Shown here in pieces: positions 18,854-48,449 of a DNA stretch of 64,000 bases. Positions within the stretch are counted from its first letter, which is position 1; each line of letters opens with the position of its first letter. A program made the translations under genes and the position numbers. The DNA is taken from NCBI RefSeq assembly GCF_000317145.1, contig NC_019697.1, positions 3,444,385 to 3,508,384 on the forward strand, given 5' to 3'. The stretch is from Chamaesiphon minutus PCC 6605. GTDB taxonomy: Bacteria > Cyanobacteriota > Cyanobacteriia > Cyanobacteriales > Chamaesiphonaceae. The notes beneath the pieces were generated by a model that worked only from the letters and a program-made list of their open reading frames with translations, was not told where the DNA came from and did no database searches.

Positions 18854-20347
18854 CTCGATGTTCAAGTTTTTAAGCTACAGCTCGACGATTGAGGGAGGGA
18901 GTGGGTTCTAAGCGACCTAAATCTCTACCACTCATATGTTTACCAGACGATCTCAAAAGGAAAAACTCCTGAACTGATTGACTTAATTGATTCAACTGCT
19001 CAACCGGATTAGGTGCTTGTAGCAACTGCTCAAAATATAACAACAAAGCTTCCATCTGAAGATTGCGGAGTAGACTGCCCACAGTATATGCGGGCAGCTT
19101 GCTGTCAACGCGGGCTATTTGTCTCGGGTGAAGCAAGAGGCATAAGTCAAGCAACAGACTCAGGGTCAGGCCACGGCTTGTCCCTTCTTTACCTGTTTGC
19201 TTGGCCAACTGCGCCCAACCTTCATAAGACTTCCAGTCCTCGATGAAAACCTCTACTAACCATCTCAGTGTATACGCTTGGATGATATCTATGGTGCGCC
19301 AAGTCAGATCCGTAGCAACTAAATATCGATAATCTTGCTCACCCGGATACTTCAGCGCAATCACAAATCGCTTTTTTCCGTGAGCACAAACTTCCACTCT
19401 GATACTTCCAACATTGGCTGTAATGGCAGGTTGACCTCGAATACTCAACTCTTGAGGAACTCCCGGATAACTTGAAAAATAGTGCTTTAGGCTTTGTTTT
19501 CGGCCTCGAAAACGAATATTTTGGTTATAACGCAATTGGCTAATGACTTGGACTCCACCAAATAAGCCTGATGCTGCATCCATGAATTTTGCCTGACCAT
19601 ATAGTGCATCAGCAACGACGGCTTTGATCTTGATTTGACTGTGGTGCTTCCGAAACTGCTCCATTAATCGCAACACTAATTCTGGTTTAGTTGGGTAGTC
19701 TGGATTATGGGGTGGAGCCTCTGGGCGGTTTTTTTTCGCGATACCTTTCTTTCTCAGACGTTGATCTTCTCTTGTCCATGCTTGTTGTTGAGGGTCAGGT
19801 TGATAGACCTCAAATCCAACTGGCAAGCTCACTTTGTCAGTAACTAGTATTAATAACACTATGTTTTGACCATTTATATATCCCCCGCTACCTTTGTCTC
19901 TGATTTTATGGGTTTTGAATAACCTTGGTGTCTTCTTACTGCGCTGATGATCTGAGTCGTCAGTCACCAAAGTACCTCCAGAAATACCATACTGCTTGAG
20001 CACTATTGCTATACTAACTTGAAGCATCATCTCCCATGGCAGTTTGGATTTGCGAAACATCCATGATAAGGCTCCCAGGCTGTATTTCCCCAGGCTCACC
20101 CGTTCAAATCTTGCCCAGCATACGCTGTTCGTCAGTATTATGCCCATCAGACAGAATCCGATCCATCCACGCTGAATTCTGCTCAAGCCCCCATCTGGAT
20201 TGTAACTTTTCAGTCCCTTGTTCAATTCGTTGATAAAGTCTTCGATGAAGGGCAAAGGCTTATTGAGTAGCATGTCTTTACCTTTCTATACCGATCCTTC
20301 ATCCCATATCATACACTTCAGCAGTTTTCAAAAACTTGAACATCGAG
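18854..20347 (-). mobile_element. IS4-superfamily insertion sequence, copy 1 (1494 bp)
   Basis: Ends share the 18-bp inverted repeat CTCGATGTTCAAGTTTTT. Target duplication TATTA at 18849-18853 and 20348-20352. The encoded transposase is identical to that of the copy at 52632-54125, which has the same length and opposite orientation. It inserted in intergenic DNA between rimM and a MITE. The 5-bp duplication is short for classical IS4 and suits the ISH3-like offshoot; the subgroup is unproven. Confidence 0.95.
18870..20273 (-). CDS. IS4-superfamily transposase
   Basis: 467 residues, intact. DDE catalytic features: VTDDSDHQR (first Asp region), VVADALYG (second Asp), and the Y(2)R(3)E(6)K signature in YTLRWLVEVFIEDWK. 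It is identical to the copy at 52706-54109. It cuts and joins the element ends. Probably still active, since both copies are intact, identical and have perfect duplications. Confidence 0.95.
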   Translation of the reverse strand: MLLNKPLPFIEDFINELNKGLKSYNPDGGLSRIQRGWIGFCLMGIILTNSVCWARFERVSLGKYSLGALSWMFRKSKLPWEMMLQVSIAIVLKQYGISGGTLVTDDSDHQRSKKTPRLFKTHKIRDKGSGGYINGQNIVLLILVTDKVSLPVGFEVYQPDPQQQAWTREDQRLRKKGIAKKNRPEAPPHNPDYPTKPELVLRLMEQFRKHHSQIKIKAVVADALYGQAKFMDAASGLFGGVQVISQLRYNQNIRFRGRKQSLKHYFSSYPGVPQELSIRGQPAITANVGSIRVEVCAHGKKRFVIALKYPGEQDYRYLVATDLTWRTIDIIQAYTLRWLVEVFIEDWKSYEGWAQLAKQTGKEGTSRGLTLSLLLDLCLLLHPRQIARVDSKLPAYTVGSLLRNLQMEALLLYFEQLLQAPNPVEQLNQLSQSVQEFFLLRSSGKHMSGRDLGRLEPTPSLNRRAVA

Positions 20348-24658: not shown

Positions 24659-25528
24659 ATGTCCAAACTGGAAGACCAATTCATCATTAATTTCTGGGGA
24701 GTACGCGGGAGCATTGCTTGCCCTGGAGCCGCTACCGTGCGCTACGGTGGTAATACGCCCTGCGTGGAAATGTTAGTGGGCGGTTATCGGCTGATTTTTG
24801 ATGCGGGAACCGGGATTCATGTCTTAGGACAATCATTAATGAGTCACCTTCCCGTCAGCGGACATCTATTTTTTTCGCACTCACATTGGGATCACATTCA
24901 AGGTTTCCCGTTCTTTTCTCCAGCATTTATGGAGGGTAATGAATTTGATATTTATGGTGGTGTAATTCCCCACGGCGTGACGATCGAACACCGCCTGCAC
25001 GATCAGATGAATCAGCCTAATTTTCCAGTACCGTTACAGGTAATGGGTGCCAATTTACGCTTTCACAATCTCGATTATGGCGATCGAGTCAATTTAGGCG
25101 AAGTTACCGTCTCCACGGGCGAATTAAATCATCCCGGTGGCGCGATGGGATATCGCGTAAGCTGGCGAGATTATGCCGTCGCTTATATTACCGATACCGA
25201 ACACTTTAGCACTGGACTCGATCGCAATGTATTGGCATTAGCAGATCGAGCCGATGTCCTGATCTATGATTCTACTTATACCGATGAGGAGTATTATCAT
25301 CCCCAATCTAGTAAGATCGGGTGGGGACATTCGACCTGGCAAGAAGGGGTAAAAATTGCCCAAGCAGCACGAGTCAAAAAGCTGGTAATTTTCCACCACG
25401 ATCCCAGTCATGACGATCGATTTATGGATGCAGTTGAGTCACAATCGACACGAGTTTTTCCTGAATCGATCGTTGCCAAAGAAGGGATGAAAATTTTGGT
25501 AAACGAGCGCGTATCGATCGCCAATTAA
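24659..25528 (+). CDS. MBL-fold metallo-hydrolase
   Basis: I prefer the ATG at 24659 (MSKLEDQFIINFWGVRGS), where the conserved fold begins; an ATG at 24593 adds 22 residues without conserved sequence. The metal motif is HSHWDHIQGFP (HxHxDH), with further ligands in LNHPGGAMGY, ITDTEH and the C-terminal FHHDPSHDD. GVRGS and GGNTPCVE are typical of PhnP/RNase Z-like phosphodiesterase relatives. Substrate unknown. It converges with dndC, ending 5 bases from it. Confidence 0.88.
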   Translation: MSKLEDQFIINFWGVRGSIACPGAATVRYGGNTPCVEMLVGGYRLIFDAGTGIHVLGQSLMSHLPVSGHLFFSHSHWDHIQGFPFFSPAFMEGNEFDIYGGVIPHGVTIEHRLHDQMNQPNFPVPLQVMGANLRFHNLDYGDRVNLGEVTVSTGELNHPGGAMGYRVSWRDYAVAYITDTEHFSTGLDRNVLALADRADVLIYDSTYTDEEYYHPQSSKIGWGHSTWQEGVKIAQAARVKKLVIFHHDPSHDDRFMDAVESQSTRVFPESIVAKEGMKILVNERVSIAN

Positions 25529-25533
25529 TAATT

Positions 25534-27084
25534 TTACTCCTCGATTGTATCTGGTGCCTCATCATTTTGAAACTTCATCTGCGCCCAGGTTAATTGTTTG
25601 ACCTTTTCGACATTGCCTTCTTTGACAGCATCTTTAAGATCTCGCTTTTCATGCGCGATCGCAATTGCTTCTTCTTTCGATCGAGAACTGCTATCGAAAC
25701 ACTTCTCCAGGTTTTCAAAAACCCCACGTCGCGATTTTGTCGCATGTTGGCGTTCGGTATCGAGCAATTTTGCCATCAATTCCAGGTGCATGGCATCATC
25801 GCTACAGATCTCTTCTAAAATCGACCATTCGTCACCGCCTAATAATTTCTTTTCCTGAATGCGAGTATCTTTAAACGGTTTGCCCATTACTTCCTCATAT
25901 ATCCGAGGTAGACTATCATCAAATTCGTGCTTTTCTTCCAGCCAAATTCGTCTAATTTCTCCTAACTCTTCATCAGTAATTAGGGTAATATCCTGCATAT
26001 CTGGCGGCGCAGTCTGCTGAATTTGCACCTGTGCCTCTAGCACCCGTCGCAACCAATGTTCGCGCCAAAACTTAGTATAAGGGCCAGGAATTGGAACTAT
26101 TTCAGTTGTTTCTTTATCTTCTTTAGATTTTCGCTCGAATAGTTCGACTCTACCATATATGCGTCTGAAATCTCGCTTATCGCGATCGTCATGAATATCT
26201 AATTCATTCCGAATATCTAACAATGGTTGCAACCATTCTTTATCCTCATCATTTTGAATCATTGCCTCCATCGATTTATCTTTACTCACTAGCGTACACA
26301 CCCAGCAACCAAACCGAGAATCGCCACAACTAGGGGTAGATGTATCGACAACTAACGGACATTCATTATCGGCAGTCGCACCGCGATACAGGCTGAATAA
26401 ATCCTGATTATTTCCACCCCAAGGATTCTTAAATTGCATCAGATACATCCACACCTCATCAGTCCGCCAATCCTCGATCGGGGTATAAACCAGGGAATTA
26501 ATTAAGCTCGGTCTAGGACTCAACCGATCGCGCACCCGACCTTTTTCATGCTTTTCCATAACAGTAGCGCGCTTATTACTTTCTGCCTTACGCATACCCA
26601 AAACCAGTATGACTTCACCGCAGGTATGAACGGTGTTGCGAATAAAACGGTTCGCTGGATTAATTTTTAGGCGTTCGGTACACCATCGAAATCTCATCCG
26701 TGGTGCAGGGTAGCCTTTACCAATTAAATTAGGCCAAAATCTTTCTTTAAGTTCTGGGTAAAGTAAATGAGCTTGAATTGGCATCTGTTGTTGTCGAGCA
26801 GCAGTTTTCAACTGTTCGATCGATCTATTTACCCAAACGGAGACAATTGGATTTTCTACTAATGTATCTGTAGTGATTACATGAATTGGCTTGGTACGTT
26901 GTTCTACCGGAAGTTGAGCAATTGCATTCCAAATCAATTGAAGAATACAGCTACTATCTTTGCCCCATGAAACCCCTAAAACCCACGGTATTCCATCGAG
27001 GCAGTATAATTCCTGTATCTCCTGGTTAAGTCTTTCTATTTCATCTACTAGTTCAGATACACCACGATTTTCTAGCTCTAACAT
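25534..27084 (-). CDS. dndC: DndC, DNA phosphorothioation sulfurtransferase
   Basis: 516 residues. PP-loop ATP pyrophosphatase motif SWGKDSS at 39-45; Trp replaces the usual second Gly of SGGKDS. Cluster-type cysteines lie at 135 (RWCTERL), 242, 253, 260 and 263 (CGDSRFGCWVCT), followed by SKDKSM. These are the conserved features of DndC, which with DndD and DndE replaces a non-bridging phosphate oxygen of DNA by sulfur, using sulfur from a cysteine desulfurase. It follows the DUF262 gene by 22 bases on the same strand, so they form an operon. No dndD or dndE follows; the next gene is an unrelated convergent hydrolase. Confidence 0.88.
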   Translation of the reverse strand: MLELENRGVSELVDEIERLNQEIQELYCLDGIPWVLGVSWGKDSSCILQLIWNAIAQLPVEQRTKPIHVITTDTLVENPIVSVWVNRSIEQLKTAARQQQMPIQAHLLYPELKERFWPNLIGKGYPAPRMRFRWCTERLKINPANRFIRNTVHTCGEVILVLGMRKAESNKRATVMEKHEKGRVRDRLSPRPSLINSLVYTPIEDWRTDEVWMYLMQFKNPWGGNNQDLFSLYRGATADNECPLVVDTSTPSCGDSRFGCWVCTLVSKDKSMEAMIQNDEDKEWLQPLLDIRNELDIHDDRDKRDFRRIYGRVELFERKSKEDKETTEIVPIPGPYTKFWREHWLRRVLEAQVQIQQTAPPDMQDITLITDEELGEIRRIWLEEKHEFDDSLPRIYEEVMGKPFKDTRIQEKKLLGGDEWSILEEICSDDAMHLELMAKLLDTERQHATKSRRGVFENLEKCFDSSSRSKEEAIAIAHEKRDLKDAVKEGNVEKVKQLTWAQMKFQNDEAPDTIEE

Positions 27085-27106
27085 TTGAGTCTATTACCTA
27101 CATAAG

Positions 27107-29506
27107 TTATTTTTCTGGATTTTCTGCTAAGATACTTTGCCTTAATTTTTCAAATCTTTTTTCTAGCAACGATTTTAATATTCTTGGAGCATTTTCCTTC
27201 TGATAGTCTTCAGAGCCTATAGATATATTGCTATACTCACATTCCACTGATTCAATTGATAAAAAATGTTCATGTAAAAAGTCTATGCTATCTTGACTAC
27301 CTTTGATAGCAGATTCTATCTCCAATTTTTGAAATGATGGATTATCCGACCAATATCGGTTAGCTTTTGAAGATATCCATGCATAATTTAGAGGAGAGTT
27401 AACTGGATGATCTGTATTTCGGTCTATCTTTTCACCCGTAAATCTGTACCATAAATTAACGGCGTATAGATGATCGATTTGCAAATCTCCTCTACCTATA
27501 TGTAAACGTTCTCCACGTTCTGATTCATTACTACCACTTTTATCTCTAAACTTAAAATCTGACAATCCATTTTTAATAGAAAACGATAGAATTGCCGTCT
27601 GCATGGTACTACCTGGAGAGGACATCAAAGCTTCTTTTGTAGAATAGCCATCAACATTGCATATCATTTCAAAACGATTTTTTCCCTCAGAGCCAAGTAT
27701 AGATGATTCCGTTAAATATTGATTAGAAGAAATTCCATCATTCAAGTCTGAGACATCTGACCACTTAATTTTCGGATCGGATATATATGCTATTAATCTT
27801 GGAATATCTGATAGTATTCTCTTGTCTACTGATGAATAAGCTTTTTGATAAGCACCACCAAATATAGATCCCCAATACCACCACTCAATTTTTTTAATGA
27901 TTGTTCCATTAGGATCTTTCAGTATTTTTTTCCAGACTGAATCAGTCAATACTGATGACAAAACTAAATCCATCGGTCGATAGGGAACAGTTGATAACTT
28001 TTCTACTCCTAACTTTGATTTCATTAAGAAATAGGCACGGAGTAACTGCTTGACTGCTTGAGACTGAACTTTATGAACAACATCTCTACTTAGAGCAAGT
28101 ATTAATTTATCTGAATATCCCCAATTCTCGCTTTGAAAAATATGACGAGCAGCATTCTGATAACTAGTATATCCTTGTAAAATATTAGAACGAGTTGACC
28201 AATCATCGCCAAGAGCCTGATTTAGCTGTGCATGTAGAACAATGGCTTGTGCAAAAGATCGAGATATAGACTCAGGGAACTTACTACCTTGGTTGACTTG
28301 ATCTGCCTCTTCACTTTTTTCACCTAAAAATTTGCCTATATTCCAGAAGTTAGAGGCTACATCTTTGCCTCTAGCCCCATCTGGTAACATCAGAGTATAC
28401 TTCTCTATATTTTTGTTATACTCTTTAAAATTTTGCGAACATTCATTTTTAACAACATCTCTAAGACTACGATCTGTAGTTGTAGTTTTAGCAACTAATA
28501 AGTCGAATGTATCTAATGCTACACTACCCATGTTGATTACTGAAAAAATTCCTGACAGACGATTAAAATCTTTTGACGGCACCTCCAATACTGGAAAGGG
28601 AAATTTAATAATCTGACCCAGCAAATGTTCCAATCTTGTTTTCCAAATTAAGAATTTCTTCTTTAATTTTTCTCTCTCCTGATTATATTCAATTTCTTCA
28701 ATTTCTCCTGCATCAAATTTTCTCTTTAATGCCTGCCCATCCTTAGTACTTACGATAATCGTCTCTTGACGATAGTCAAATAATTCCATCAACAGTCTTG
28801 TTGGATCTAGTTCTAGAGAATTACTACTTTCATTTTCAAAATAAAGTTGATCTAATGGTAGATATATTCCTTCTTCCATCTCGAACTGTCTTTGCAAAGC
28901 ACTTACAGTACAAAAATCAGCCAGCTCGCCATCAGGAATACTATAATATATTGGACTTTTCTTATCAGTTCTTCTGTATTTAACTGATACAAAAACGTCG
29001 CACATTTCTTCATGTTGTATTTCTCGAATATCTAGCCACTCAAGATTATCTAACCCAAGCTTATTAAGATTTAAGAACCATCGCAGCCTGTAGCTTCTGT
29101 TTAGCTCACTACCTTCAGAAAAATGGTAAGCATTTCCAAATATTAGATCTAGTGCAGTTAGTCTTTGTTGTCCATCTAACAAATAATCGCAGCTATACTC
29201 ATCCCCTTTTTGTAAGCATTGGTTAGATTTAACAATTTCTGTATCTTTAGATGATATATTGGCTTTGCTTGCTAGAACATCTTTAAGTGTTTTTTCTGGA
29301 ATAGATAGTGGTCTATTAATAGACATCATCTTACTGTTGGCTTCTGTCCCGATTAAAGCTTGTCCAACCGGATACTCAAGCAAAATGGAGGCTAACAATG
29401 ATTGCCATCGCTCAGGATTCCAAACAAATGGACGTTGAAAATTAGGCAACAAAAGATCCCCTTTTCGTAGTGCATATAGTAGTTGCCCAAGTGTTCTGGT
29501 TGTCAT
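27107..29506 (-). CDS. DUF262/DUF1524 nuclease, SspE/GmrSD-like
   Basis: 799 residues. The N-terminal DUF262 (ParB-like NTPase) region has LLPNFQRPFVWNPERWQSLL and the nucleotide motif DGQQR (111-115) in LLDGQQRLTALDLIFG. A long helical middle follows. The C-terminal part has DHLYAVNLW and NSPLNYAWISSKANRYWSDN, matching the DUF1524 HNH pattern (His, Asn, Asn). Proteins of this layout include GmrSD (type IV restriction of modified DNA) and SspE, which senses phosphorothioate DNA and nicks non-modified invaders. The link to dndC suggests a phosphorothioate-dependent restriction role. Transcribed first in the operon with dndC. Codon use is AT-richer than its neighbours, hinting at transfer. Confidence 0.85.
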   Translation of the reverse strand: MTTRTLGQLLYALRKGDLLLPNFQRPFVWNPERWQSLLASILLEYPVGQALIGTEANSKMMSINRPLSIPEKTLKDVLASKANISSKDTEIVKSNQCLQKGDEYSCDYLLDGQQRLTALDLIFGNAYHFSEGSELNRSYRLRWFLNLNKLGLDNLEWLDIREIQHEEMCDVFVSVKYRRTDKKSPIYYSIPDGELADFCTVSALQRQFEMEEGIYLPLDQLYFENESSNSLELDPTRLLMELFDYRQETIIVSTKDGQALKRKFDAGEIEEIEYNQEREKLKKKFLIWKTRLEHLLGQIIKFPFPVLEVPSKDFNRLSGIFSVINMGSVALDTFDLLVAKTTTTDRSLRDVVKNECSQNFKEYNKNIEKYTLMLPDGARGKDVASNFWNIGKFLGEKSEEADQVNQGSKFPESISRSFAQAIVLHAQLNQALGDDWSTRSNILQGYTSYQNAARHIFQSENWGYSDKLILALSRDVVHKVQSQAVKQLLRAYFLMKSKLGVEKLSTVPYRPMDLVLSSVLTDSVWKKILKDPNGTIIKKIEWWYWGSIFGGAYQKAYSSVDKRILSDIPRLIAYISDPKIKWSDVSDLNDGISSNQYLTESSILGSEGKNRFEMICNVDGYSTKEALMSSPGSTMQTAILSFSIKNGLSDFKFRDKSGSNESERGERLHIGRGDLQIDHLYAVNLWYRFTGEKIDRNTDHPVNSPLNYAWISSKANRYWSDNPSFQKLEIESAIKGSQDSIDFLHEHFLSIESVECEYSNISIGSEDYQKENAPRILKSLLEKRFEKLRQSILAENPEK

Positions 29507-29677
29507 GAATCGATATTTATACTAAGGGGTGACACAGACTATTAACAGGCTAACACATGCGTAATCAGGATTAAATATAATTAAACTCACAGATTCGTTA
29601 AGTTTTTAAAAACCTCTGAAAGCGGTGGCGGGAAAGCTGCTAATCTAGTTGCGGTAACTTCACTCAACCGTCGGACA

Positions 29678-31186
29678 ATGCCAGCTAGCAAGATTCCTAA
29701 CCTTCAGCCTAATGAAATCCTCGTCCAACGCACTAACATGGGCGGTAGTGAGGCTTATATCGGCTCTGTGACGCTGCAATGGTTGGCCGATCGAGTAAAA
29801 TATGCCTCGGAGATGAGTTTGCTATCCGATCGACATCAGCCTCAAGATAAGAACATCTCGATCGATAGCGATAGTATCGAAGTTATCCAACAGCGTCCGC
29901 TAGACTGGAGCCGACAGGCTGCTTTAGTACAATATTTAGCAGGGCGAACTACTCATAAATTCCCGCCCGTATTAGTGACGATCGACAGGGGTTGGGTTGA
30001 TAATATTCATGCGGATGAGTGGGGGAGAGGCGGCAAAGCCACTGAGTCGGCAGCGATATTTATGCCACTAGATGGTAATAATAGTTTCGGGCTATTAGAT
30101 GTGGGCGAATCTGTGCGGATTTATGCCCTTGATGGACAACATCGGTTGATGGGCGTACAGGGATTGATGGAGTTATTACGTGCTGGTGAATTGCCTCGAT
30201 ATAATAAAGAGCGGCATCCGGTAGGTAATAAAATTACGTTGGCTGAATTGGGGACATCGGAGGCATATTTAGAGAGTTTACCTCAGGAAACGATCGGGAT
30301 TGAATTTATCTCGGCGGTGGTAAAAGGTGAGACACAATTAGAGGCGCGCCGCAGGATTCGATCGATCTTCGTCCATGTTAATCTAATGGCGATCGCGTTG
30401 AGTAAAGGACAATTAGCCCAGTTAGATGAAAATGATGGCTTTGCGATCGTGGCCAGACAAATTGCTGTCAATCATCCCTTATTAAAAGATATCCCAGGAC
30501 GCAACCCTCGCGTGAATTGGGATAGTGCGACGGTGGCGACTAAAACTACCGTGCTGACAACTCTGCAAGCTCTGCAAGATATGGCGGCAAAATATCTGCA
30601 ATATCGGTTCCCTCTGTGGAAGCCTAAAGCCCAGAAAGGTTTGGTGCCGTTGCGTCCAGATACCGCCGAATTAGAATTGGGAATTGAGTCTTTTAATCGG
30701 TTGTTCGACAAGCTATCCCAATTTACCAGCTACGGACGGTTAAAAGGCGAAGATACGACTAAATTGCGCCGATTTAGTTTTGAAATCGACGGCGGTGAGG
30801 GACATTTATTATTTCGCCCCGTCGGGCAAGTTGCCTTCGCGCAAGGGGTGGGAATGGCGGTTTTTAAAAAACAAATGGTTGAAACCGAGGTTTTCCGTAA
30901 ACTCGATCGCTATGATGCCGATGGTGGGTTTAGTAATATTAATCTGCCGCAATCTCTATGGTATGGAATTTTATTCGACCCTAATAAGAAACGTATCCTG
31001 GTATCTGGGCGCGATTTGGCTGCTAAGTTGATTGTATATTTACTAGGCGGCGTGGATAATGATTTCGATCGCGCCGAACTCCGCCGTCAAGTTGCTGAAG
31101 CGAGAACTATCGGTGAATATGCAATGAGTTTTGAGGGTGAATTAGTCACGCCCAAGGAGGTTGGTTTGCCACCACTATTGACATGA
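29678..31186 (+). CDS. dndB: DndB-like DGQHR-domain protein
   Basis: 502 residues. The DGQHR motif is at 152-156 in RIYALDGQHRLMGVQGL, followed by the family's RIRSIFVHVNLMAIALSKGQ segment (equivalent of the F-V-D-V-N-T region). DndB regulates the dnd genes and the modification level by binding the dnd promoter region. It is divergent from the DUF262-dndC operon across 171 bases, the usual dndB position, so the shared intergenic region probably holds its operator. GC content is higher than in the DUF262 gene. Confidence 0.85.
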   Translation: MPASKIPNLQPNEILVQRTNMGGSEAYIGSVTLQWLADRVKYASEMSLLSDRHQPQDKNISIDSDSIEVIQQRPLDWSRQAALVQYLAGRTTHKFPPVLVTIDRGWVDNIHADEWGRGGKATESAAIFMPLDGNNSFGLLDVGESVRIYALDGQHRLMGVQGLMELLRAGELPRYNKERHPVGNKITLAELGTSEAYLESLPQETIGIEFISAVVKGETQLEARRRIRSIFVHVNLMAIALSKGQLAQLDENDGFAIVARQIAVNHPLLKDIPGRNPRVNWDSATVATKTTVLTTLQALQDMAAKYLQYRFPLWKPKAQKGLVPLRPDTAELELGIESFNRLFDKLSQFTSYGRLKGEDTTKLRRFSFEIDGGEGHLLFRPVGQVAFAQGVGMAVFKKQMVETEVFRKLDRYDADGGFSNINLPQSLWYGILFDPNKKRILVSGRDLAAKLIVYLLGGVDNDFDRAELRRQVAEARTIGEYAMSFEGELVTPKEVGLPPLLT

Positions 31187-31200
31187 GCAAATCTACCTGA

Positions 31201-32010
31201 CTACCATTTTAATGGTTGTAAAAGTTGCCCGGTCAAGCTTGGCTCGATCGGCATTTCAATCCCATATTTTTGCGGCCAGCGATGTTTGGGGAGATAAAAT
31301 GAACCGAAGAGGATGTCGATAATCGGCAAAATTGCGGCATAGTTTTTGTTAATATACTCCGCACCATCATTCGTATGATGCCAATGGTGAAAAGCAGGCG
31401 TAGCCAACAACCGTTCGACAAAACCAAACCGCCAATTCATATTCGCGTGAACCCAAAAACTCCAGATGGTACCAACGAACGAATATAATAGCGGTACGAT
31501 GTCCGCAGAGTCTGCCGTTGGCTGTGCCAAACCCAGGAGATAGATCGGGACTAAGCCTGTAAACCGCCCAAAAAACATATCCAACGGATGGGCGCGAGTA
31601 TTTACCAACCAGTCAATCTCTTCCGAACTATGGTGGATGGCATGAAACCGCCAGAGCCAGGGAATCTCATGCGACCAACGATGACCCCAATAAGCACCAA
31701 ATTCGCCGACAATTATCGCTAGGACGAACCGCACTCGCAAGGGTAATGCTGCAACCCAAGTATAGATTCCGCTGGGTTCGAGCTGATGCACTGCCGCAGC
31801 AACGAGCGACATGGGTATAATTAATAGCAGTTTGGGCAGCAGACTATTGAGGAAGTAATAACCCAAGTCAATGAAAAATTCTTTCCGCAAAACTGGCTGT
31901 TTTTTCTGGGCACAGAGCCGTTCTAGCGGGATAAAGACGATCGCGATAATTACCAACCAGGTACATAAGCTGAAGATTTCTAATGCTAATGATGGCAGAT
32001 ACTGTTGCAT
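31201..32010 (-). CDS. Fatty acid hydroxylase / sterol desaturase superfamily protein
   Basis: 269 residues with four or five membrane helices. The di-iron histidine boxes are HRWSHE, HAIHHSS and HHWHHTND, plus the NTRAHPLD segment typical of the superfamily. It probably hydroxylates or desaturates a lipid at the membrane. The substrate (carotenoid, fatty acid, sterol-like) cannot be told. Convergent with dndB, 14 bases apart. Confidence 0.88.
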   Translation of the reverse strand: MQQYLPSLALEIFSLCTWLVIIAIVFIPLERLCAQKKQPVLRKEFFIDLGYYFLNSLLPKLLLIIPMSLVAAAVHQLEPSGIYTWVAALPLRVRFVLAIIVGEFGAYWGHRWSHEIPWLWRFHAIHHSSEEIDWLVNTRAHPLDMFFGRFTGLVPIYLLGLAQPTADSADIVPLLYSFVGTIWSFWVHANMNWRFGFVERLLATPAFHHWHHTNDGAEYINKNYAAILPIIDILFGSFYLPKHRWPQKYGIEMPIEPSLTGQLLQPLKW

Positions 32011-42751: not shown

Positions 42752-44365
42752 GTGGATGAACATCCTTCCCTAAATATTGCGGTCGCCCGCTTAGGCGCGA
42801 CCACGCCAGACAATTATGCGGTGTGGGTGCTCAAAGCACCATATCCTGGCGGCTACGTAATTGAAAATTGTACCTGGACGATCGAGCTATCCCAAATTTG
42901 GTTGGGATGGCAAGGGTTGTTTAATCCTGGCAGCAGACCCTATTGTCTGCCCTGCCATCAAGATCTGAGTATTCCGGAGTTAGATTTAGAAACGATCGCA
43001 CCTGTAGATGCGCCGCAGCCGCAACTCTATAGTGCGAATTTGATGCAGCACTTGGGCATCAATTTGTGGCAGTGGTTATTTTGCAAACAGGTGGGAAATG
43101 CCTTTGCTCAAAGTCAGGGCATGGCGATCGGACAGGGCAAATCGCTCCGTCTGCGCCTGGAAATTCGCGATCCCGACTCAATCTCCATTCCGTGGGAAAT
43201 CATGCAGTCACAGCACGGTAAACCCGCGCTCTCGATCGATCGACTGGTGTTGTTCAGCCGGACGAATAGCGATGTCGATCCCTTGCCGCCGCAACGACTC
43301 GATCGATCGATTAAAATCCTGTTAGTTTTGGGTCAAAATATCCCTGGCAGTCCCAATCTCGACCTAGAAAAAGAATCAGCCACGATCGCCCAAGCTCTGC
43401 GGAGTACCATGCCCAGCGGCTTCAATCCCCCCAATCGACTCAATCCCGCAGGTTGTAATGTCGATACGCTCGTGCGACCCACTCCAGAGGAGCTGATTGC
43501 CAAACTTGAGAGTCAGCAATATAACGTATTTTTCTATGCCGGACATGGGATGTCCGCACCCGATGGGGGTTTATTACTGCTTAACGATGTGGGTGGTTTG
43601 AATGGTACCGAGCTGGCACAATTACTCGTCCGCTGTGGCGTCAAACTAGCCGTATTTAATTCTTGTTGGGGCGCGCAGCCATACCAGCATCAACAGCAAG
43701 CCGTTCCCCGCAGTAGCTTGGCAGAAGTCTTGCTGCATTACGGCGTTCCGGCAGTACTCGCCATGCGCGATACAATTGCCGATCGCGAGGCTTTAAGCTT
43801 TATTCAGACTTTTACTCAGGCTCTGGCACACCGATTGAGTATCGATGAAGCTGCGGCGATTGCCAGACAGCAATTATTGATTTCATTTAAGTTCAATCAA
43901 CCTGCCTGGACGCTACCAATTTTGTACATGCACCCAGAGTTTAATGGAGAATTAATCAGACCATTAGCTGAAGCAATTACCGAAATTCCGTCCGTACCGC
44001 AAGCGATTCCCGTCGCCTATATGCGATCGCTGAGTTTTCATACCCATCCAGATTTTCCGATTGATGGTGGCTTGATGCGCGTCGGCAGATCTAACGATAA
44101 TGATTTAGTAGTAGTCGAGCCGTGGGTATCTCAACGCCATGCCGAAATTATCTATCGATCGCCATCGATGACCGATTTTACTCAGGGAATTTATTATCTA
44201 CGCGATACATCTCGGTTTGGCAGTTATGTATTGACTCTCGAAAATAAATGGGTCAAAGTTCACGCGCGCGAATTTCCACTCGAATCGGGAATGCAGATTA
44301 AATTTGGTAGTGAAGAAGGGCAAATTTTGGAGTTTAGAATCGATCGGCAAGAGTGGCTCCGGTAA
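42752..44365 (+). CDS. CHAT-FHA protein (caspase-like protease with phosphopeptide-binding domain)
   Basis: 537 residues with a GTG start. The N-terminal segment (about 8-60) is the cyanobacterial CHAT-associated region. The CHAT peptidase has catalytic His265 in FFYAGHGMS and Cys305 in VFNSCWG. The C-terminal FHA domain begins near 440 with MRVGRSNDNDLVV, and SQRHAEI (Ser/His of the binding site) follows. CHAT proteases act in bacterial caspase-like death and defence pathways; FHA would recruit a phospho-Thr partner. The next genes on the opposite strand encode a NACHT protein and RloAB. Confidence 0.88.
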   Translation: MDEHPSLNIAVARLGATTPDNYAVWVLKAPYPGGYVIENCTWTIELSQIWLGWQGLFNPGSRPYCLPCHQDLSIPELDLETIAPVDAPQPQLYSANLMQHLGINLWQWLFCKQVGNAFAQSQGMAIGQGKSLRLRLEIRDPDSISIPWEIMQSQHGKPALSIDRLVLFSRTNSDVDPLPPQRLDRSIKILLVLGQNIPGSPNLDLEKESATIAQALRSTMPSGFNPPNRLNPAGCNVDTLVRPTPEELIAKLESQQYNVFFYAGHGMSAPDGGLLLLNDVGGLNGTELAQLLVRCGVKLAVFNSCWGAQPYQHQQQAVPRSSLAEVLLHYGVPAVLAMRDTIADREALSFIQTFTQALAHRLSIDEAAAIARQQLLISFKFNQPAWTLPILYMHPEFNGELIRPLAEAITEIPSVPQAIPVAYMRSLSFHTHPDFPIDGGLMRVGRSNDNDLVVVEPWVSQRHAEIIYRSPSMTDFTQGIYYLRDTSRFGSYVLTLENKWVKVHAREFPLESGMQIKFGSEEGQILEFRIDRQEWLR

Positions 44366-44511
44366 GTAGTTATTGACGATCGCCACCATCGATTGAGGCA
44401 TCGCTCGCCGCCTTTCGACGGTAAAGTGAAATTTATCCAGTCGCAAATATTTTATGAGATAATTATGTTATTAAGCTTTTCTAGTTAATTTAGGACTCGA
44501 TCGATGTAAAT

Positions 44512-44793
44512 ATGTCTGAAGAAAGGTTGGAGCGTGTAGAAAATCAACTTTCTGTTTTGCAGCAAGACATGACTGCAACAAAGCAAAATGTAGATGCACT
44601 TAGAGATGATGTATCTTCTTTGCGGCAGAGATTCGATAGTTTTGAAGGGACAATTCTTACAGCTATCCGTGAAGGGTTTGATTCTCTGCGCCGTTATTCC
44701 GACGATCTCAACTATGAGGTTGCTGACAATGCTAGAGCGACGCGGTTATTAAAACGACGAGTCGCTCGTCTAGAAAGGAAAGAAGAAGATTAA
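44512..44793 (+). CDS. Small coiled-coil protein
   Basis: 93 residues, nearly all heptad-patterned (LERVENQLSVLQQDM, VDALRDDVSSLRQRFD) with a basic tail RRVARLERKEED. No enzyme motif. It ends 9 bases from the convergent NACHT gene. It is typical of small cyanobacterial coiled-coil proteins found near conflict or signalling genes; function unknown. Confidence 0.7.
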   Translation: MSEERLERVENQLSVLQQDMTATKQNVDALRDDVSSLRQRFDSFEGTILTAIREGFDSLRRYSDDLNYEVADNARATRLLKRRVARLERKEED

Positions 44794-44802
44794 GGGCAAA
44801 GG

Positions 44803-47769
44803 CTATCGCTCCCAAATTTGAATAAATTGTCGATCTGGTAATCGATCGGCGCAATACCAAAGTAATTTATAACATGTCATCGCACAAGCAGATCGATCGC
44901 CTTTTTCTACTTCTATAACTTGACTTTTTAGATGAGTAATAATTAGAGGTAATTGTTCGATTACTGCGACCTCTTTGAGATATTCTCCAGTGAGTTTGTA
45001 GAAACTTTTGGACTGGGGGGAAGAAAGTAGTTGTAATAACACATCTACTGCTAACGGATGTCCGGGTTGAAATTTACCTAATTGATAGGCATAACGGCGT
45101 TGAGATTCGACATTATTAATCGTTGTTAGTTTGTGTTCGATTTGAGCGATCGCGATTTCGATATTTTGGGCGCGGGCTACTTTTTTCCGCCGATTGCGGG
45201 TGCTGCTGGGCAAAGTGCGCGTGTCTATAAATTGCTGCTGGGTAGCTGGATGGGTGGGTGCGAGCTGTCGGAGATTTTCCATTGCAGCCATACCATCGGC
45301 GTGGTGGCGCAGGCTTTGGGAGGGCGATGAATCTCCAGATTCAATGATGCTAACGAGCGTATCGATCGCGAGGATAAGTAATGAATTATTATCATCGTTG
45401 GCGTAGCCTCTCAGAATGGGAATCGTGGCTGATTCGAGTAATACTTTACCTAAAGTGAAGGCAGCTTTGCGAGTTAGAGATACTGTTTTTTTACTGTGGA
45501 TAATATTGACGAGAGTAGAGATTGCAGTCTCATTATAGTTAGGATCGATCTTGGTTAATGATTCGCAAATCTTGATCAGGAGATCGCTGTGAGAAACTAG
45601 ATCGATCGTCTTAGTTAAAGCAGAGATCGCGATCGGATTTCCCGGATCGAATACTTTACCTAAGCTGTGGGCTGCTTGCCAACAAATGAATGGACTTTCG
45701 ACAGTTTGAACGAGTTTTTCTAACCCAGAAATAGCAGCAGTTCGATCGGTTTGTCTGAGCGATACTCTCGCCCCATCCTGGACTGGTAGGGGATAAAATT
45801 GCCAGGTATCGAGCGTGGGAATGAACTTAGCAAATCGCCATTGCAGTAACCGATCGACAATCTGCTGACTATAAATAGATTCCGGGAATTCGGCGAGTAC
45901 GGCGGCGGCTAAAAAGTAAGCCCGATAGTGATAAAATCCGCCATGAGATCGATCGAAATCGATTAATGCAGCGATAAATGATTCCTTTTCATTCGCCGTG
46001 ATATCTGCTCGCCCAAACCAAAACAGGATAGTCTCTTGCCAATAGGGACTAAAAATTGGTGAGTGAGTGGTTATAGTTCCCGCCAAAAAGTAGTGCCAAT
46101 CGTCGATCGATCGAGCGGCAAAATATTCCTGAAAAGTGGAATGATAAAAAGCATAAATTTTGGCTCCCGTACTAGCAGAAATACCAACCTGATTCAACCA
46201 ACCTAGTTGTAATGCTAGTTCGAGCAGTTCTGGCGAGAGTAATTCTAAAACAGTATGCTCGTGGAGTCTAAATCTGACTCGTTCTTGGGTTTCTCCTGAT
46301 GACTCTAAGCTGAGTGCTTGCAGAGCTAATTTGCCTAAAGCCGAGTTTAACTGCTGACGTTGTGCCAAACTAGTCGGAAACCGATCTTGTTTCCACGCAT
46401 AAATCGTGTCGGTAAATTGTCGATACAAACTAGCTTTGGTACTGGGTAATTTACCTTGAGTCAGCAACCAGTAGCGACATAATAAAGCCAATCGCAGCGG
46501 ATTTTTGACAGCATCGCGCAACCGTTGATATTGAGGTTGTGCTAATTCGATACTGAGATTTTCACCCAGATGTGGCTGAGTGCGAAACCAGCCTTGAATA
46601 AATTGTCGCACTCGATCGGGCGAGCCGCGATAACCATCGCTCAAACTGAGATGGCGATAAGTACTAAAATTTTCTAATGCGTTTTTACCACTATCCCAAA
46701 CATTCGATCGACATGTCAAAATCACATGTGCGGAACCAATCCAGCCCCGCAATTGCCGATCGATATTCGCCAGCGCGATACTCGCATCAATGGCCATTTC
46801 ATCGACAGCATCGAGCAGCAACCACACTCTTCCCCGCTCGAATTGTGATGCAAAATCTTGTTGCAATTGCGGCGCGATCGCGAGTTGGCGAGTAGCCAGT
46901 TTGAGCCAGTCTTGTAACAGATAATCTTCCAAAGTTTTACCCTGAAGATCGGCAAGCGAAATCCAGATCGGCAGCAATTGCAAATCGAGCATTCCAGCGG
47001 CTAACTTTTGCAAACAGGTAGTTTTGCCCGAACCTGGTTCGCCGATAATCCCAATCCGATTGGTTTCTGAATTGGTGACTAATCGCGCTAACAATCGATC
47101 GAGATCGAGATCGCCGATCGTCTGCGCCCCAATTTCCTCGCTAATACCATCGATACCCGCTTGCCCCTCAAATATAGTGGCGCGTTGTCTTTCCATCAAG
47201 TCTAGGGGCACATAGACCTCTTCGAGACTAAATTTCAGTCGCTCCTCTCCCATCAGCGGATTGGTGGTAATCCGGTGATACTGTTGAGTATTCAGACTCG
47301 ATCGCACTAGCTCCCACCAGTAATCTAGGTTAGCCACTGCTGGTTGACTATCAATCGAAGGTTGCGGTGACTTCCGGCGATCCCATTCCCGCGAAAATCG
47401 ATCGAGATTAGCCGCTCGATCGAATCTGTCATGCCACAAATTGAGGGTAAAATGCCAAGTTTCCGAGCCACCCTTGCTCGCGCGATTATCTTCGACAATC
47501 TCCAGAAAATCAGTCAAACATTTAATCGCTTCCTTGATCTGTTCCCCAGTTAGTGTTGCACCTGCTAATTTAGCTAACTGTTCGAGATATCTAACTTTCG
47601 TCCGAATTACACACCGCTGGGAAGTTTGCCAATGCAGTTGAATATCCCGTTGTAAGTTCTCTAACTGGCGTTCGTCGGCAGCTAATTCATCATTGGCATA
47701 GTCAACTAGCACCATGAAAAATTGCACGGTGCGTTGTTTGACGGCATTACCATAATTAGGACGCGGCAT
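44803..47769 (-). CDS. NACHT-domain NTPase with HEAT repeats (NLR-like)
   Basis: 988 residues. The N-terminal ~130 residues form an unnamed helical region ending in WHFTLNLWHDRFDRAANL. The NACHT domain has Walker A GEPGSGKT (243-250), Walker B WLLLDAVDEMAI (316-327) and a sensor CRSNVWD. A helical middle follows, then roughly five HEAT-like units from about 690 to 860. Bacterial NACHT proteins (bNACHT) protect against phages and resemble eukaryotic NLRs. It starts 46 bases after rloB on the same strand, so it is likely the third gene of a rloA-rloB-NACHT operon. Confidence 0.88.
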   Translation of the reverse strand: MPRPNYGNAVKQRTVQFFMVLVDYANDELAADERQLENLQRDIQLHWQTSQRCVIRTKVRYLEQLAKLAGATLTGEQIKEAIKCLTDFLEIVEDNRASKGGSETWHFTLNLWHDRFDRAANLDRFSREWDRRKSPQPSIDSQPAVANLDYWWELVRSSLNTQQYHRITTNPLMGEERLKFSLEEVYVPLDLMERQRATIFEGQAGIDGISEEIGAQTIGDLDLDRLLARLVTNSETNRIGIIGEPGSGKTTCLQKLAAGMLDLQLLPIWISLADLQGKTLEDYLLQDWLKLATRQLAIAPQLQQDFASQFERGRVWLLLDAVDEMAIDASIALANIDRQLRGWIGSAHVILTCRSNVWDSGKNALENFSTYRHLSLSDGYRGSPDRVRQFIQGWFRTQPHLGENLSIELAQPQYQRLRDAVKNPLRLALLCRYWLLTQGKLPSTKASLYRQFTDTIYAWKQDRFPTSLAQRQQLNSALGKLALQALSLESSGETQERVRFRLHEHTVLELLSPELLELALQLGWLNQVGISASTGAKIYAFYHSTFQEYFAARSIDDWHYFLAGTITTHSPIFSPYWQETILFWFGRADITANEKESFIAALIDFDRSHGGFYHYRAYFLAAAVLAEFPESIYSQQIVDRLLQWRFAKFIPTLDTWQFYPLPVQDGARVSLRQTDRTAAISGLEKLVQTVESPFICWQAAHSLGKVFDPGNPIAISALTKTIDLVSHSDLLIKICESLTKIDPNYNETAISTLVNIIHSKKTVSLTRKAAFTLGKVLLESATIPILRGYANDDNNSLLILAIDTLVSIIESGDSSPSQSLRHHADGMAAMENLRQLAPTHPATQQQFIDTRTLPSSTRNRRKKVARAQNIEIAIAQIEHKLTTINNVESQRRYAYQLGKFQPGHPLAVDVLLQLLSSPQSKSFYKLTGEYLKEVAVIEQLPLIITHLKSQVIEVEKGDRSACAMTCYKLLWYCADRLPDRQFIQIWER

Positions 47770-47815: not shown

Positions 47816-48448
47816 TCAACGAATGTATCGATTCAATTCTTCAACCAGGAGATGAACGGTGGTAGCAGGATTATCGTTTTCCGGCTCGTGCGGATCGTAA
47901 CTGGCTAATAGGTTTTTAGCGTGCTTGATTGCTTGAGTTTGTTTATCTTCAAGCTTGACATACATATCATCACTATTTTTCTCATAATCGCAGCCTAGTA
48001 ATTTAGTCAGCTTTTTCTTATAATCACTTCTCGGCACGCCAGTATTAAAATAGTGAAAATGTAATAAATACCAAATTTCAAAGCACTCATTGGAATAGGC
48101 TACATTAATATTTTCCTTGGCCGCTATTTTCAATGCTTCTCTAAACCTATGTGCAGTATTATTAACCTTAGATGGATCTCGATCGAATACACACCATACT
48201 CGATCGAATTTTTTAGCTGTCATTAACTCGATCGCCTTATTGACTACCGCAACTGTTTCGCAGCTAGCCCCAATAATAGTAACTTCTGGTCTAGTACTGA
48301 CGGGAAAACTTTTAAAATAATTTGGCTCAGTTTTTTCGCCTTCACAGACAATCAGAAAAGTCGGAATGGTATCTCTAGTACCCAAGATTCTTTCTGTAAA
48401 ACCTTTGTCCGAACGTGATTGCGATTGACGCTCTTTATTCCTAGACAT
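47816..48448 (-). CDS. RloB-like Toprim protein
   Basis: 210 residues. Toprim-type acidic residues: E36 in IVCEGEKTEPNYF and D89/D91 in VFDRDPSK. The C-terminal part has ECFEIWYLLHF, typical of the RloB family. RloB proteins partner RloA-type ATPases in abortive-infection systems such as AbiL and are probable nucleases. The gene begins 1 base after rloA ends. Confidence 0.87.
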   Translation of the reverse strand: MSRNKERQSQSRSDKGFTERILGTRDTIPTFLIVCEGEKTEPNYFKSFPVSTRPEVTIIGASCETVAVVNKAIELMTAKKFDRVWCVFDRDPSKVNNTAHRFREALKIAAKENINVAYSNECFEIWYLLHFHYFNTGVPRSDYKKKLTKLLGCDYEKNSDDMYVKLEDKQTQAIKHAKNLLASYDPHEPENDNPATTVHLLVEELNRYIR

Positions 48449-48449
48449 A

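What the first reader, a model, noticed from the sequence alone, without database searches (positions are those of the whole stretch)
25534..31186. Reduced phosphorothioation-like module: DndB, DUF262/HNH and DndC without DndD, DndE or DndA
Canonical modification needs DndA (or IscS), C, D and E. Here DndC is co-transcribed with a SspE/GmrSD-like DUF262-HNH protein and divergent from DndB, and the next genes on both sides are unrelated. It may be a hybrid of Dnd and Ssp logic, with modification proteins elsewhere, or a different sulfur-based defence unit. The SWGKDS loop is also a variant of SGGKDS.
Basis: partly seen in the sequence, partly recalled or inferred. Interest (0 to 1): 0.75.

Follow-up and report, generated by a model that had tools for sequence, protein, structure and literature searches.

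The report
Sulfur-DNA defence genes, scattered genome-wide
This stretch of a Chamaesiphon-like cyanobacterium carries one of the enzymes that put sulfur into the DNA backbone next to a probable DNA-cutting defence protein, while the other sulfur-marking genes do exist but lie about a million bases or more away, so it is an unusual layout of a known kind of defence rather than a stripped-down new one.

Summary
The three genes are real and exactly placed. DndC is genuine: NCBIfam equivalog, 698 bits, cut-off 290. "Without DndD, DndE" holds only locally. The same genome encodes DndD (634 bits, cut-off 246) at 0.85 Mb and DndE (119 bits, cut-off 72) at 4.44 Mb; the window's dndC is at 3.47 Mb. The best DndA-like desulfurase is below the DndA cut-off. 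The split modification set is shared by the genus.

The "DndB" is a different, long DGQHR protein, the usual divergent neighbour of cyanobacterial dndC (46 of 57 loci).

The DUF262-HNH protein is rare. The two other near-full-length relatives found both sit beside phosphorothioation genes: a Nostoc dndCDE locus and a Vibrio ssp plasmid locus. In Chamaesiphon it occupies the place that sulfur-binding HNH nucleases or DndB occupy in relatives.

Best reading: a phosphorothioate-guarded restriction nuclease working like DndI/SspE, in a position that accepts different nucleases. SWGKDS is ordinary (26 of 80). New variant of a known kind; no biochemical proof.

The parts
25534..27084 (-). dndC (516 aa), phosphorothioation sulfurtransferase
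   Evidence: TIGR03183 698 bits, cut-off 290; PADLOC DndC 656 bits; G37, S39, G41, K42, D43, S44 and Cys135/242/253/260/263 identical in 81 of 81 aligned DndC; dN/dS about 0.13 against L011
26953..26970 (-). SWGKDS loop (aa 39-44 of DndC)
   Evidence: SWGKDS in 26, SGGKDS in 47, SFGKDS in 6, SLGKDS in 1 of 80 related DndC: a common variant
26296..26361 (-). Cys242-Cys263 cluster of DndC, presumed 4Fe-4S ligands (equivalence to the Salmonella C280 region is inferred)
   Evidence: four cysteines (242, 253, 260, 263) invariant in 81 of 81
27107..29506 (-). DUF262-HNH nuclease (799 aa), proposed phosphorothioate-guarded restriction effector, 22 bp upstream of dndC on the same strand
   Evidence: PF03235 75.9 bits; 65% identical full-length relative in a Nostoc dnd locus; near-full-length relative, E 4e-27, in a Vibrio ssp locus; GC 34.6% against 40.8-51.5% for the nine other window genes measured
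29432..29455 (-). LLLPNFQR motif (aa 18-25); F23 lies where DndI has Y25 and SspE Y30
   Evidence: P21, F23, Q24, R25 kept in all three relatives; DndI/SspE residues from PMC11662687 section 19, their region as aligned
29162..29176 (-). DGQQR NTP-binding motif (aa 111-115)
   Evidence: invariant in all three relatives
27125..27520 (-). C-terminal GmrSD/DUF1524-type HNH domain (aa 663-794; D678, H679, N707, N716)
   Evidence: hhalign 98.6%, E 5.9e-16 against a set of DUF262-DUF1524 proteins; four residues kept in the Nostoc relative; N707 and N716 kept in the Vibrio relative, whose D-H pair is not in register in the alignment; not reported by Pfam
29507..29677 (.). 171-bp divergent region between the DUF262-dndC pair and the DGQHR gene
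   Evidence: sequence; promoter-like sites in 25400-31300 no more frequent than in shuffles; no inverted repeat with arms over 7 nt
29678..31186 (+). long DGQHR-domain protein (502 aa), conserved divergent partner of cyanobacterial dndC; not the DndB equivalog
   Evidence: TIGR03187 158 bits, cut-off 59; TIGR03233 14.5 bits, cut-off 328; divergent from dndC within 6 kb in 46 of 57 loci with over 6 kb upstream, 44 of the 46 full length
30131..30145 (+). DGQHR motif (aa 152-156)
   Evidence: invariant in the 38 aligned proteins, 37 chosen out of 54 full-length ones plus the window

Best explanation
This is one piece of a dispersed Dnd phosphorothioation (PT) restriction-modification system. Inferred steps: DndC from the window, charged with sulfur by an IscS-type desulfurase, works with DndD (0.85 Mb) and DndE (4.44 Mb) to put PT marks on host DNA. 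The DUF262-HNH protein, probably made from the same transcript as DndC, is the restriction part. It binds NTP through its DUF262/DGQQR domain and senses PT near the P21-F23-Q24 pocket. NTP hydrolysis then lets it leave marked self DNA, and its C-terminal HNH domain nicks unmarked phage DNA. The divergent DGQHR protein is a ParB-fold regulator or NTPase acting on the shared promoter region, in the role of DndB. Shown by computation: the genes, domains, motifs, genomic dispersal, PT-gene linkage of the three family members found, and different genes at the same position in relatives. Not shown: PT in the DNA, transcription, nuclease activity, PT sensing, phage resistance.
For: DndC, DndD and DndE all pass curated cut-offs in this one genome, with conserved residues and purifying selection on DndC. 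Of 11 family genomes, DndC is in 7, DndD over cut-off in 8 and DndE over cut-off in 9; both sister-genus genomes lack all three. Fifteen of 15 other cyanobacterial genomes whose fetched DndC locus lacks dndD have an over-cut-off dndD. The three family members found are PT-linked: the window; Nostoc sp. 106C, between a dnd-associated gene and DGQHR-dndC-dndD-dndE; a Vibrio scophthalmi plasmid, beside sspBCD. The C-terminal half matches only the other two among 19 DUF262 proteins tested. In Nostoc it lies where 11 of 31 comparable loci have a sulfur-binding HNH nuclease. In Chamaesiphon the gene directly upstream of dndC is DUF262-HNH in the window, SBD-HNH in three genomes, DndB in two, neither in one. 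Domain layout equals that of DndI and SspE.
Against: The family is rare: 1 of 388 class genomes, the window's own, and 1 of 80 dnd loci, so PT linkage rests on three cases. DndI and SspE structures are not reached by the two-sequence profile at E up to 10; the one hit is another DUF262 protein, 7p9k. The PT-sensing tyrosine is phenylalanine, which is also common in other DUF262 proteins. The HNH histidine is not in register in the Vibrio relative. Similar N-terminal domains occur in non-PT settings such as DISARM. Neighbour contents are clustered on the DndC tree more than in shuffles (25 changes, shuffled mean 38.3), so part of the pattern is inheritance. A C5-cytosine methylase lies beside dndD, so DndD may serve another modification. 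The AlphaFold model of the DUF262-HNH protein failed (pLDDT 34).
Confidence: 0.6

Rival explanations
1. The DUF262-HNH protein is an ordinary type IV, modification-dependent nuclease of the GmrSD/BrxU kind that attacks modified phage DNA, and it sits beside dndC only because defence genes cluster.
For: The only solved structure reached is 7p9k (E 3e-4), which I recall as BrxU. DUF262 proteins with similar N-termini sit in DISARM and other settings. The gene is AT-rich and looks acquired.
Against: The three family members found are next to PT genes of two different systems. It takes the place of sulfur-binding HNH nucleases or DndB in relatives. Partial matches were PT-linked in 0 of 6 annotated stretches, so linkage follows the full-length family.
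Confidence: 0.18
2. The DUF262-HNH protein cleaves PT-marked DNA rather than sparing it, as sulfur-binding-domain HNH enzymes are reported to do, and acts as a suicide effector or as a block to incoming PT DNA.
For: It stands where SBD-HNH proteins stand in relatives. SBD homologues bind PT DNA and restrict transfer of a dnd plasmid (PMC6224610, passages).
Against: It is encoded by a cell that also has DndC, DndD and DndE, where a PT-cleaving enzyme would attack the chromosome. The DUF262-HNH enzymes known from PT systems spare PT DNA (PMC11662687, sections 17-19 and 21).
Confidence: 0.1
3. The dispersed dnd genes are relics: DndD and DndE now serve the neighbouring C5 methylase or nothing, and DndC with its neighbours is being lost.
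For: dndD is followed at 34 bp by a C5-cytosine methylase gene in the window genome and in one more of 8 genus dndD loci. Cytosine methylases are described with related systems (PMC10853773, abstract and passages).
Against: DndC is under purifying selection with its cysteines kept. DndC, DndD and DndE co-occur in 7 of 9 genus genomes; the two without DndC are 77% and 82% complete.
Confidence: 0.08
4. One reading: a reduced three-gene unit that makes a sulfur-based mark or defence without DndD and DndE.
For: None of the partner genes lies in the window.
Against: Partners are in the genome. In Nostoc sp. 106C the same kind of nuclease gene lies beside a contiguous DGQHR-dndC-dndD-dndE set.
Confidence: 0.03

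Closest known systems
IscS-DndBCDE-DndI of Salmonella enterica Cerro 87 (PMC11662687)
   Same: Dnd modification genes plus a DUF262-HNH nuclease with DGQQR and HNH motifs; IscS-type desulfurase in place of DndA
   Different: Here modification genes are at three separate chromosomal sites; the nuclease is another DUF262-HNH subfamily (DndI and SspE not reached by its two-sequence profile); Phe at the PT-sensing position; the DGQHR protein is not the DndB equivalog; dndFGH was not searched for
SspABCD-SspE
   Same: DUF262-HNH effector beside a PT modification system; the only near-full-length non-cyanobacterial relative found is in an ssp locus on a Vibrio plasmid
   Different: Modification genes found here are dndC, dndD and dndE; SspB and SspC were not searched for in this genome
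Dnd modification neighbourhoods with alternative nucleases (Rakesh, Aravind and Krishnan 2024, PMC10853773)
   Same: Idea that nucleases in dnd neighbourhoods are the true restriction parts; SBD-HNH, helicase and CxC/PbeC ATPase parts recur in my loci
   Different: The words DUF262 and DndI do not occur in that paper's main text; it calls DndD-DndE an always-linked dyad, which this genus contradicts
Split dnd clusters of Microcoleus (PMC8546630) and disordered cyanobacterial dnd operons (PMC8569181)
   Same: dnd genes separated in cyanobacterial genomes
   Different: There dndBC versus dndDE on different contigs; here three sites on one contig of a 3-contig assembly, with D and E also apart
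GmrSD/BrxU type IV enzymes
   Same: DUF262 plus HNH architecture; three GmrS motifs (QR, DGQQR, FxxxN) and the D-H-N-N motif in the window protein
   Different: PT gene linkage; no evidence on modified-base recognition

Membership tests
Dnd PT modification system | DndC equivalog | tested here: met
   TIGR03183 698.1 bits, cut-off 290.4
Dnd PT modification system | DndD in the genome | tested here: met
   TIGR03185 633.6 bits, cut-off 245.85, C1:853479-855455
Dnd PT modification system | DndE in the genome | tested here: met
   TIGR03184 119.2 bits, cut-off 71.85, C1:4440937-4441248
Dnd PT modification system | DndA, or IscS in its place | tested here: inconclusive
   best hit 443 bits, DndA cut-off 480; IscS substitution is known from the literature, not shown here
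Dnd PT modification system | dndC, dndD and dndE in one operon | tested here: not met
   3.47, 0.85 and 4.44 Mb on contig C1
Dnd PT modification system | phosphorothioate linkages in the DNA | not testable with these tools
   needs LC-MS or iodine cleavage
DndB | DndB equivalog model | tested here: not met
   TIGR03233 14.5 bits, cut-off 328; broader Pfam DndB family met, 49.3 bits, cut-off 29.1
DndI / SspE | N-terminal DUF262 with DGQQR | tested here: met
DndI / SspE | C-terminal DUF1524-type HNH | tested here: met
   hhalign 98.6%, E 5.9e-16; Pfam alone gave no hit
DndI / SspE | PT-sensing tyrosine (Y25 / Y30) | tested here: not met
   Phe23 in all three family members; flanking P and Q kept
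DndI / SspE | sequence kinship to DndI or SspE beyond shared domains | tested here: inconclusive
   9jfl, 6jiv and 7drs not reached from the A1 profile at E up to 10, although reached from a general DUF262-HNH profile
DndI / SspE | encoded with PT modification genes | tested here: met
DndI / SspE | PT-regulated NTPase and DNA nicking | not testable with these tools
   biochemistry needed
SspABCD | SspB and SspC in the genome | not tested
GmrSD / BrxU type IV restriction | DUF262 plus DUF1524 architecture | tested here: met
GmrSD / BrxU type IV restriction | cleaves only modified DNA | not testable with these tools
   biochemistry needed

The most novel reading that the evidence does not exclude
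A separate subfamily of DUF262-HNH nucleases is a plug-in PT-sensing effector used by both kinds of PT modification system, Dnd in cyanobacteria and Ssp in Vibrio. In cyanobacteria it competes for one genomic position with sulfur-binding HNH nucleases and DndB. In Chamaesiphon the modification machinery itself has been broken into unlinked parts (dndC, dndD, dndE, perhaps an orphan PbeC-type ATPase) and has stayed that way across the genus, so that the nuclease is co-expressed with only one of the proteins that must protect the cell from it.
Probability: 0.4. Interest if true: 0.6.

Novelty: new variant of a known kind. Interest (0 to 1): 0.45.

Why it matters
A 2021 survey states that PT restriction systems (there meaning dndFGH) are absent from cyanobacteria and suggests an antioxidant origin for dnd there (PMC8569181, passages). 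A candidate PT restriction enzyme beside cyanobacterial dnd genes is already in print for Microcoleus (PMC8546630, passages). The loci here add several candidate PT-linked nucleases at one position with changing contents, which makes the question testable. The genus also contradicts the statement that dndD and dndE are always a linked pair (PMC10853773, passage), and suggests that a PT system can persist with its essential genes unlinked. If the nuclease subfamily is PT-guarded, one effector type serves both Dnd and Ssp marks, which bears on how such enzymes read a backbone sulfur.

Tried and rejected
Rejected: a reduced module lacking DndD and DndE. Rejected: SWGKDS as a special feature. Rejected: the DGQHR protein as DndB proper.

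Mobile carriage: the window nuclease gave no match in phage records or viral contigs, and two plasmid matches, the Vibrio one and a partial Arthrobacter one. The DGQHR protein gave no plasmid match. The Vibrio protein gave 10 plasmid and 3 phage records. Apart from its own record these cover 11-17% of it. Of the 9 other plasmid records I opened 6 (H4, H5, H6, H8, H11, H12). H4 (Shinella) carries no annotation and was left out of the count. H7 and H10 were not opened, H9 is a second record of the H8 species with the same match, and the phage records were not opened. With Arthrobacter (H2) this gives the 6 annotated partial matches. One of them (Paenarthrobacter) aligns with the window protein as far as residue 571 at 22% identity.

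Led nowhere: AlphaFold of the DUF262-HNH protein with only two sequences (pLDDT 34), so no fold search was made with it. The DGQHR model (pLDDT 78) gave no PDB match at E up to 0.001. Promoter and terminator scans were at or below chance.

Weak points of my own scripts: my ABC-ATPase profile mixed DndD and PbeC proteins, so its scores were not used to tell the two apart; PADLOC was used instead for single proteins. The locus labels H, A, S and B come from home-made profiles; representatives, not all members, were checked against curated libraries. Several representatives lie below the curated cut-offs (SBD-HNH 123 and 110 bits, cut-off 180; L018 helicase 384, cut-off 600).

The 80 loci are the best 80 of 202 matches found by short peptide patterns of the window's own DndC, so counts are for close, mostly cyanobacterial relatives.
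Full report
OBSERVATION. DndC, 25534-27084(-), is a clear member of the DndC equivalog (698 bits, cut-off 290). The DUF262 gene, 27107-29506(-), lies 22 bp upstream of dndC on the same strand. The DGQHR gene, 29678-31186(+), is divergent across 171 bp. Flanking genes are a beta-lactamase-fold protein and a fatty-acid-hydroxylase family protein. The host looks like Chamaesiphon: the five best DndC matches, 81-84% identical, are Chamaesiphon records.

WHAT IS MISSING LOCALLY IS PRESENT IN THE GENOME. The assembly has 6,761,765 bases in 3 contigs and is rated 100% complete. DndD scores 633.6 bits (cut-off 245.85) at C1:853479-855455. DndE scores 119.2 bits (cut-off 71.85) at C1:4440937-4441248. 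The window's dndC is at C1:3469921-3471468. The best DndA-model match is 443 bits, below the cut-off of 480, so DndA proper is absent by that test and an IscS-type enzyme would have to serve.

THE SPLIT IS OLD. Of 11 genomes of the family (9 of the genus including the window's, 2 of a sister genus), DndC is found in 7, DndD over cut-off in 8 and DndE over cut-off in 9; the sister genus has none of the three. The two genus genomes without DndC are 77% and 82% complete. In the window's assembly the three genes are on one contig, about 1 to 3.6 Mb apart. In the six draft relatives that have all three, they are on three different contigs each; those drafts have 170 to 760 contigs, so only the window's own assembly proves distance. 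dndE lies next to the same isopentenyl-diphosphate isomerase-like gene in 9 of 9 genus genomes that have it (that gene name is my reading of the protein, not a library result). Elsewhere, 20 of 80 fetched DndC loci lack dndD in the fetched stretch. I searched the genomes of 15 of these (the other 5 are Chamaesiphon), and 15 of 15 have an over-cut-off DndD. Some of those loci are cut by contig ends, so this shows presence, not always distance. Among loci with over 5 kb after dndC, 44 of 57 have dndD within 5 kb. Among loci with over 4 kb after dndD, 33 of 42 have dndE within 4 kb; where the other 9 keep dndE was not searched. In print: Microcoleus has dndBC and dndDE on different contigs (PMC8546630, passages); disordered dnd operons in cyanobacteria are noted (PMC8569181, passages and section 7); an older paper found dndC-D-E still clustered in cyanobacteria (PMC2442094, passages). 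PMC10853773 calls DndD-DndE an always-linked dyad (passage); this genus is an exception.

THE DGQHR PROTEIN. It fails the DndB equivalog (14.5 bits, cut-off 328) but passes the DGQHR domain model and Pfam DndB. It has only marginal similarity to the full-length DndB-family protein of a relative (E 0.003 in a single comparison). That relative's protein itself scores 227 bits with Pfam DndB but only 79 of 328 with the equivalog model. The long DGQHR protein is found in 58 of 80 dndC loci, 4 of them as partial or broken copies. Of 57 loci with over 6 kb upstream of dndC, 46 have it divergent from dndC within 6 kb, 44 of those full length. The window's genome has no other Pfam-DndB match at E up to 0.001.

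THE DUF262-HNH PROTEIN. The N-terminal domain passes PF03235. The three GmrS motifs (QR pair, DGQQR, FxxxN) and the D-H-N-N motif listed in PMC4619093 (passages) are present and kept in the Nostoc relative. The 663-794 region matches DUF262-DUF1524 proteins at 98.6% probability. Relatives are few. None was found at E up to 1e-20 in the other 387 class genomes searched, and one in 80 dndC loci: Nostoc sp. 106C, 65% identical. The best plasmid match is Vibrio scophthalmi pVS127, 23% identical, E 4e-27, aligned over residues 4-723 of 799. There the motifs LLLPxFQR, DGQQR, FxxxN and the two HNH asparagines are kept, but the D-H pair is not in register in the alignment. That gene lies beside SspD (418 bits), SspC (two ORFs, 800 and 334 bits) and SspB (329 bits) by PADLOC, with an annotated cysteine desulfurase beyond. 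In a test against 19 DUF262 proteins, these two among them, the C-terminal half matched only these two; for the rest the best E was 0.3. Six other plasmid DUF262 proteins with partial matches and annotation (Arthrobacter; Nostoc C057, Scytonema, Salinibacter, Roseinatronobacter, Paenarthrobacter from the Vibrio query) show no PT genes in the stretch shown; two lie in DISARM-type loci, one so annotated and one of the same layout. So PT linkage holds for 3 of 3 members of this family and for 0 of 6 partial matches examined.

DIFFERENT GENES AT THE SAME POSITION. In Chamaesiphon the gene directly upstream of dndC is DUF262-HNH in the window, a sulfur-binding-domain HNH protein in three genomes (G389, G391, G392), a DndB-family protein in two (G388, G393), and neither in one (G390, equated with L013 by contig coordinates). 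The window's genome has no SBD-HNH match at E up to 1e-5. The sulfur-binding assignment rests on a match to the solved domain SBDHga1 (68 bits) and on a below-cut-off match to the PT-DNA restriction model (123 bits, cut-off 180). In Nostoc sp. 106C the DUF262-HNH gene lies between a dnd-associated small gene (TIGR04062, 191 bits, cut-off 74) and the DGQHR gene. Of 31 loci with that frame, 11 have SBD-HNH there, 3 a DndB-family gene, 4 a DGQHR plus GIY-YIG-like pair, 5 nothing, 7 other genes and 1 the DUF262-HNH gene. On the DndC tree the window and five Chamaesiphon rows form one group (SH-aLRT 100) with four different contents, and the two DUF262 rows need two changes. Over 71 rows with a label the contents need 25 changes, against a shuffled mean of 38.3 (0 of 200 as low), so contents change repeatedly but are also inherited (10 rows without enough upstream sequence were not counted). 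The DUF262 gene has 34.6% GC and 24.5% GC3 in the window, against 42-47% GC for dndC and the DGQHR gene, in keeping with acquisition.

MECHANISM. I infer a DndI/SspE-like effector. DndI nicks DNA, its ATPase is stimulated by PT, and PT lets it leave self DNA (PMC11662687, sections 17-19 and 21). The window protein has the same parts but Phe in place of the sensing Tyr. Phe is also common in other DUF262 proteins, so that position does not decide. The protein could instead be a type IV enzyme or cleave PT DNA; see rivals.

NOVELTY. That dnd neighbourhoods carry other nucleases as likely restriction parts is in print (PMC10853773, abstract, section 17 and passages). A DUF262-HNH effector for Dnd is in print (PMC11662687). 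I found no paper on this subfamily or on PT in Chamaesiphon in the searches, which cover open-licence PubMed Central papers only and of which I mostly saw listings. What is added here: the three-way split of dndC, dndD and dndE in one assembly, a PT-linked DUF262-HNH subfamily spanning Dnd and Ssp, and its presence where relatives have SBD-HNH or DndB.

Noticed in passing
L002:504-1460 (genome C1, beside dndD) and L108:504-1460: A C5-cytosine DNA methylase gene (PF00145, 313 and 310 bits) lies 34 bp after dndD in 2 of 8 genus dndD loci, some of which are cut short, so DndD may be tied to a second modification.
   Followed up: partly
L003:1378-3456 (genome C1:4866049-4868004): An orphan PbeC-type ABC ATPase (PADLOC PbeC 975 bits); the genome's only DndE match is elsewhere. 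Below-cut-off DndD-model hits of similar score occur in 8 of 11 family genomes and in neither sister-genus genome (only the window's was checked as PbeC). It may be a fourth dispersed part of the PT system.
   Followed up: partly
L012:400-1356 and SBD-HNH genes of 27 of 80 dnd loci, 15 of them directly upstream of dndC: Sulfur-binding-domain HNH nucleases are encoded beside dnd genes in cyanobacteria that should carry PT, where a PT-cleaving enzyme would be self-destructive; their real mode of action is open.
   Followed up: partly
L066:5450-8134 and five other loci: A pair of genes, a 663-aa weak DGQHR protein and a 228-aa GIY-YIG-like protein (20.9 bits, below the Pfam cut-off), recurs beside dnd genes.
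   Followed up: no
L171:11198-14549 (Vibrio scophthalmi pVS127): SspC is present as two overlapping ORFs matching successive parts of the SspC profile; described only.
   Followed up: no
window 47816-49685: A gene pair matching the AbiLi/AbiLii abortive-infection models (323 and 111 bits), with an AAA ATPase and an RloB-like protein: a second defence candidate in the window.
   Followed up: no
window 42752-47769: A CHAT-FHA protein and a NACHT protein with effector-associated domain 4, next to the AbiL-like pair.
   Followed up: no
window 18870-20273 and 52706-54109: Two transposase genes identical over 1404 nt, on opposite strands; further transposase genes at 4214-4975 and 62423-63565.
   Followed up: no
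L166 and L167 (IMG/VR contigs): DndC relatives, 56% identical, on two contigs of a viral collection; whether these are true viruses was not tested.
   Followed up: no
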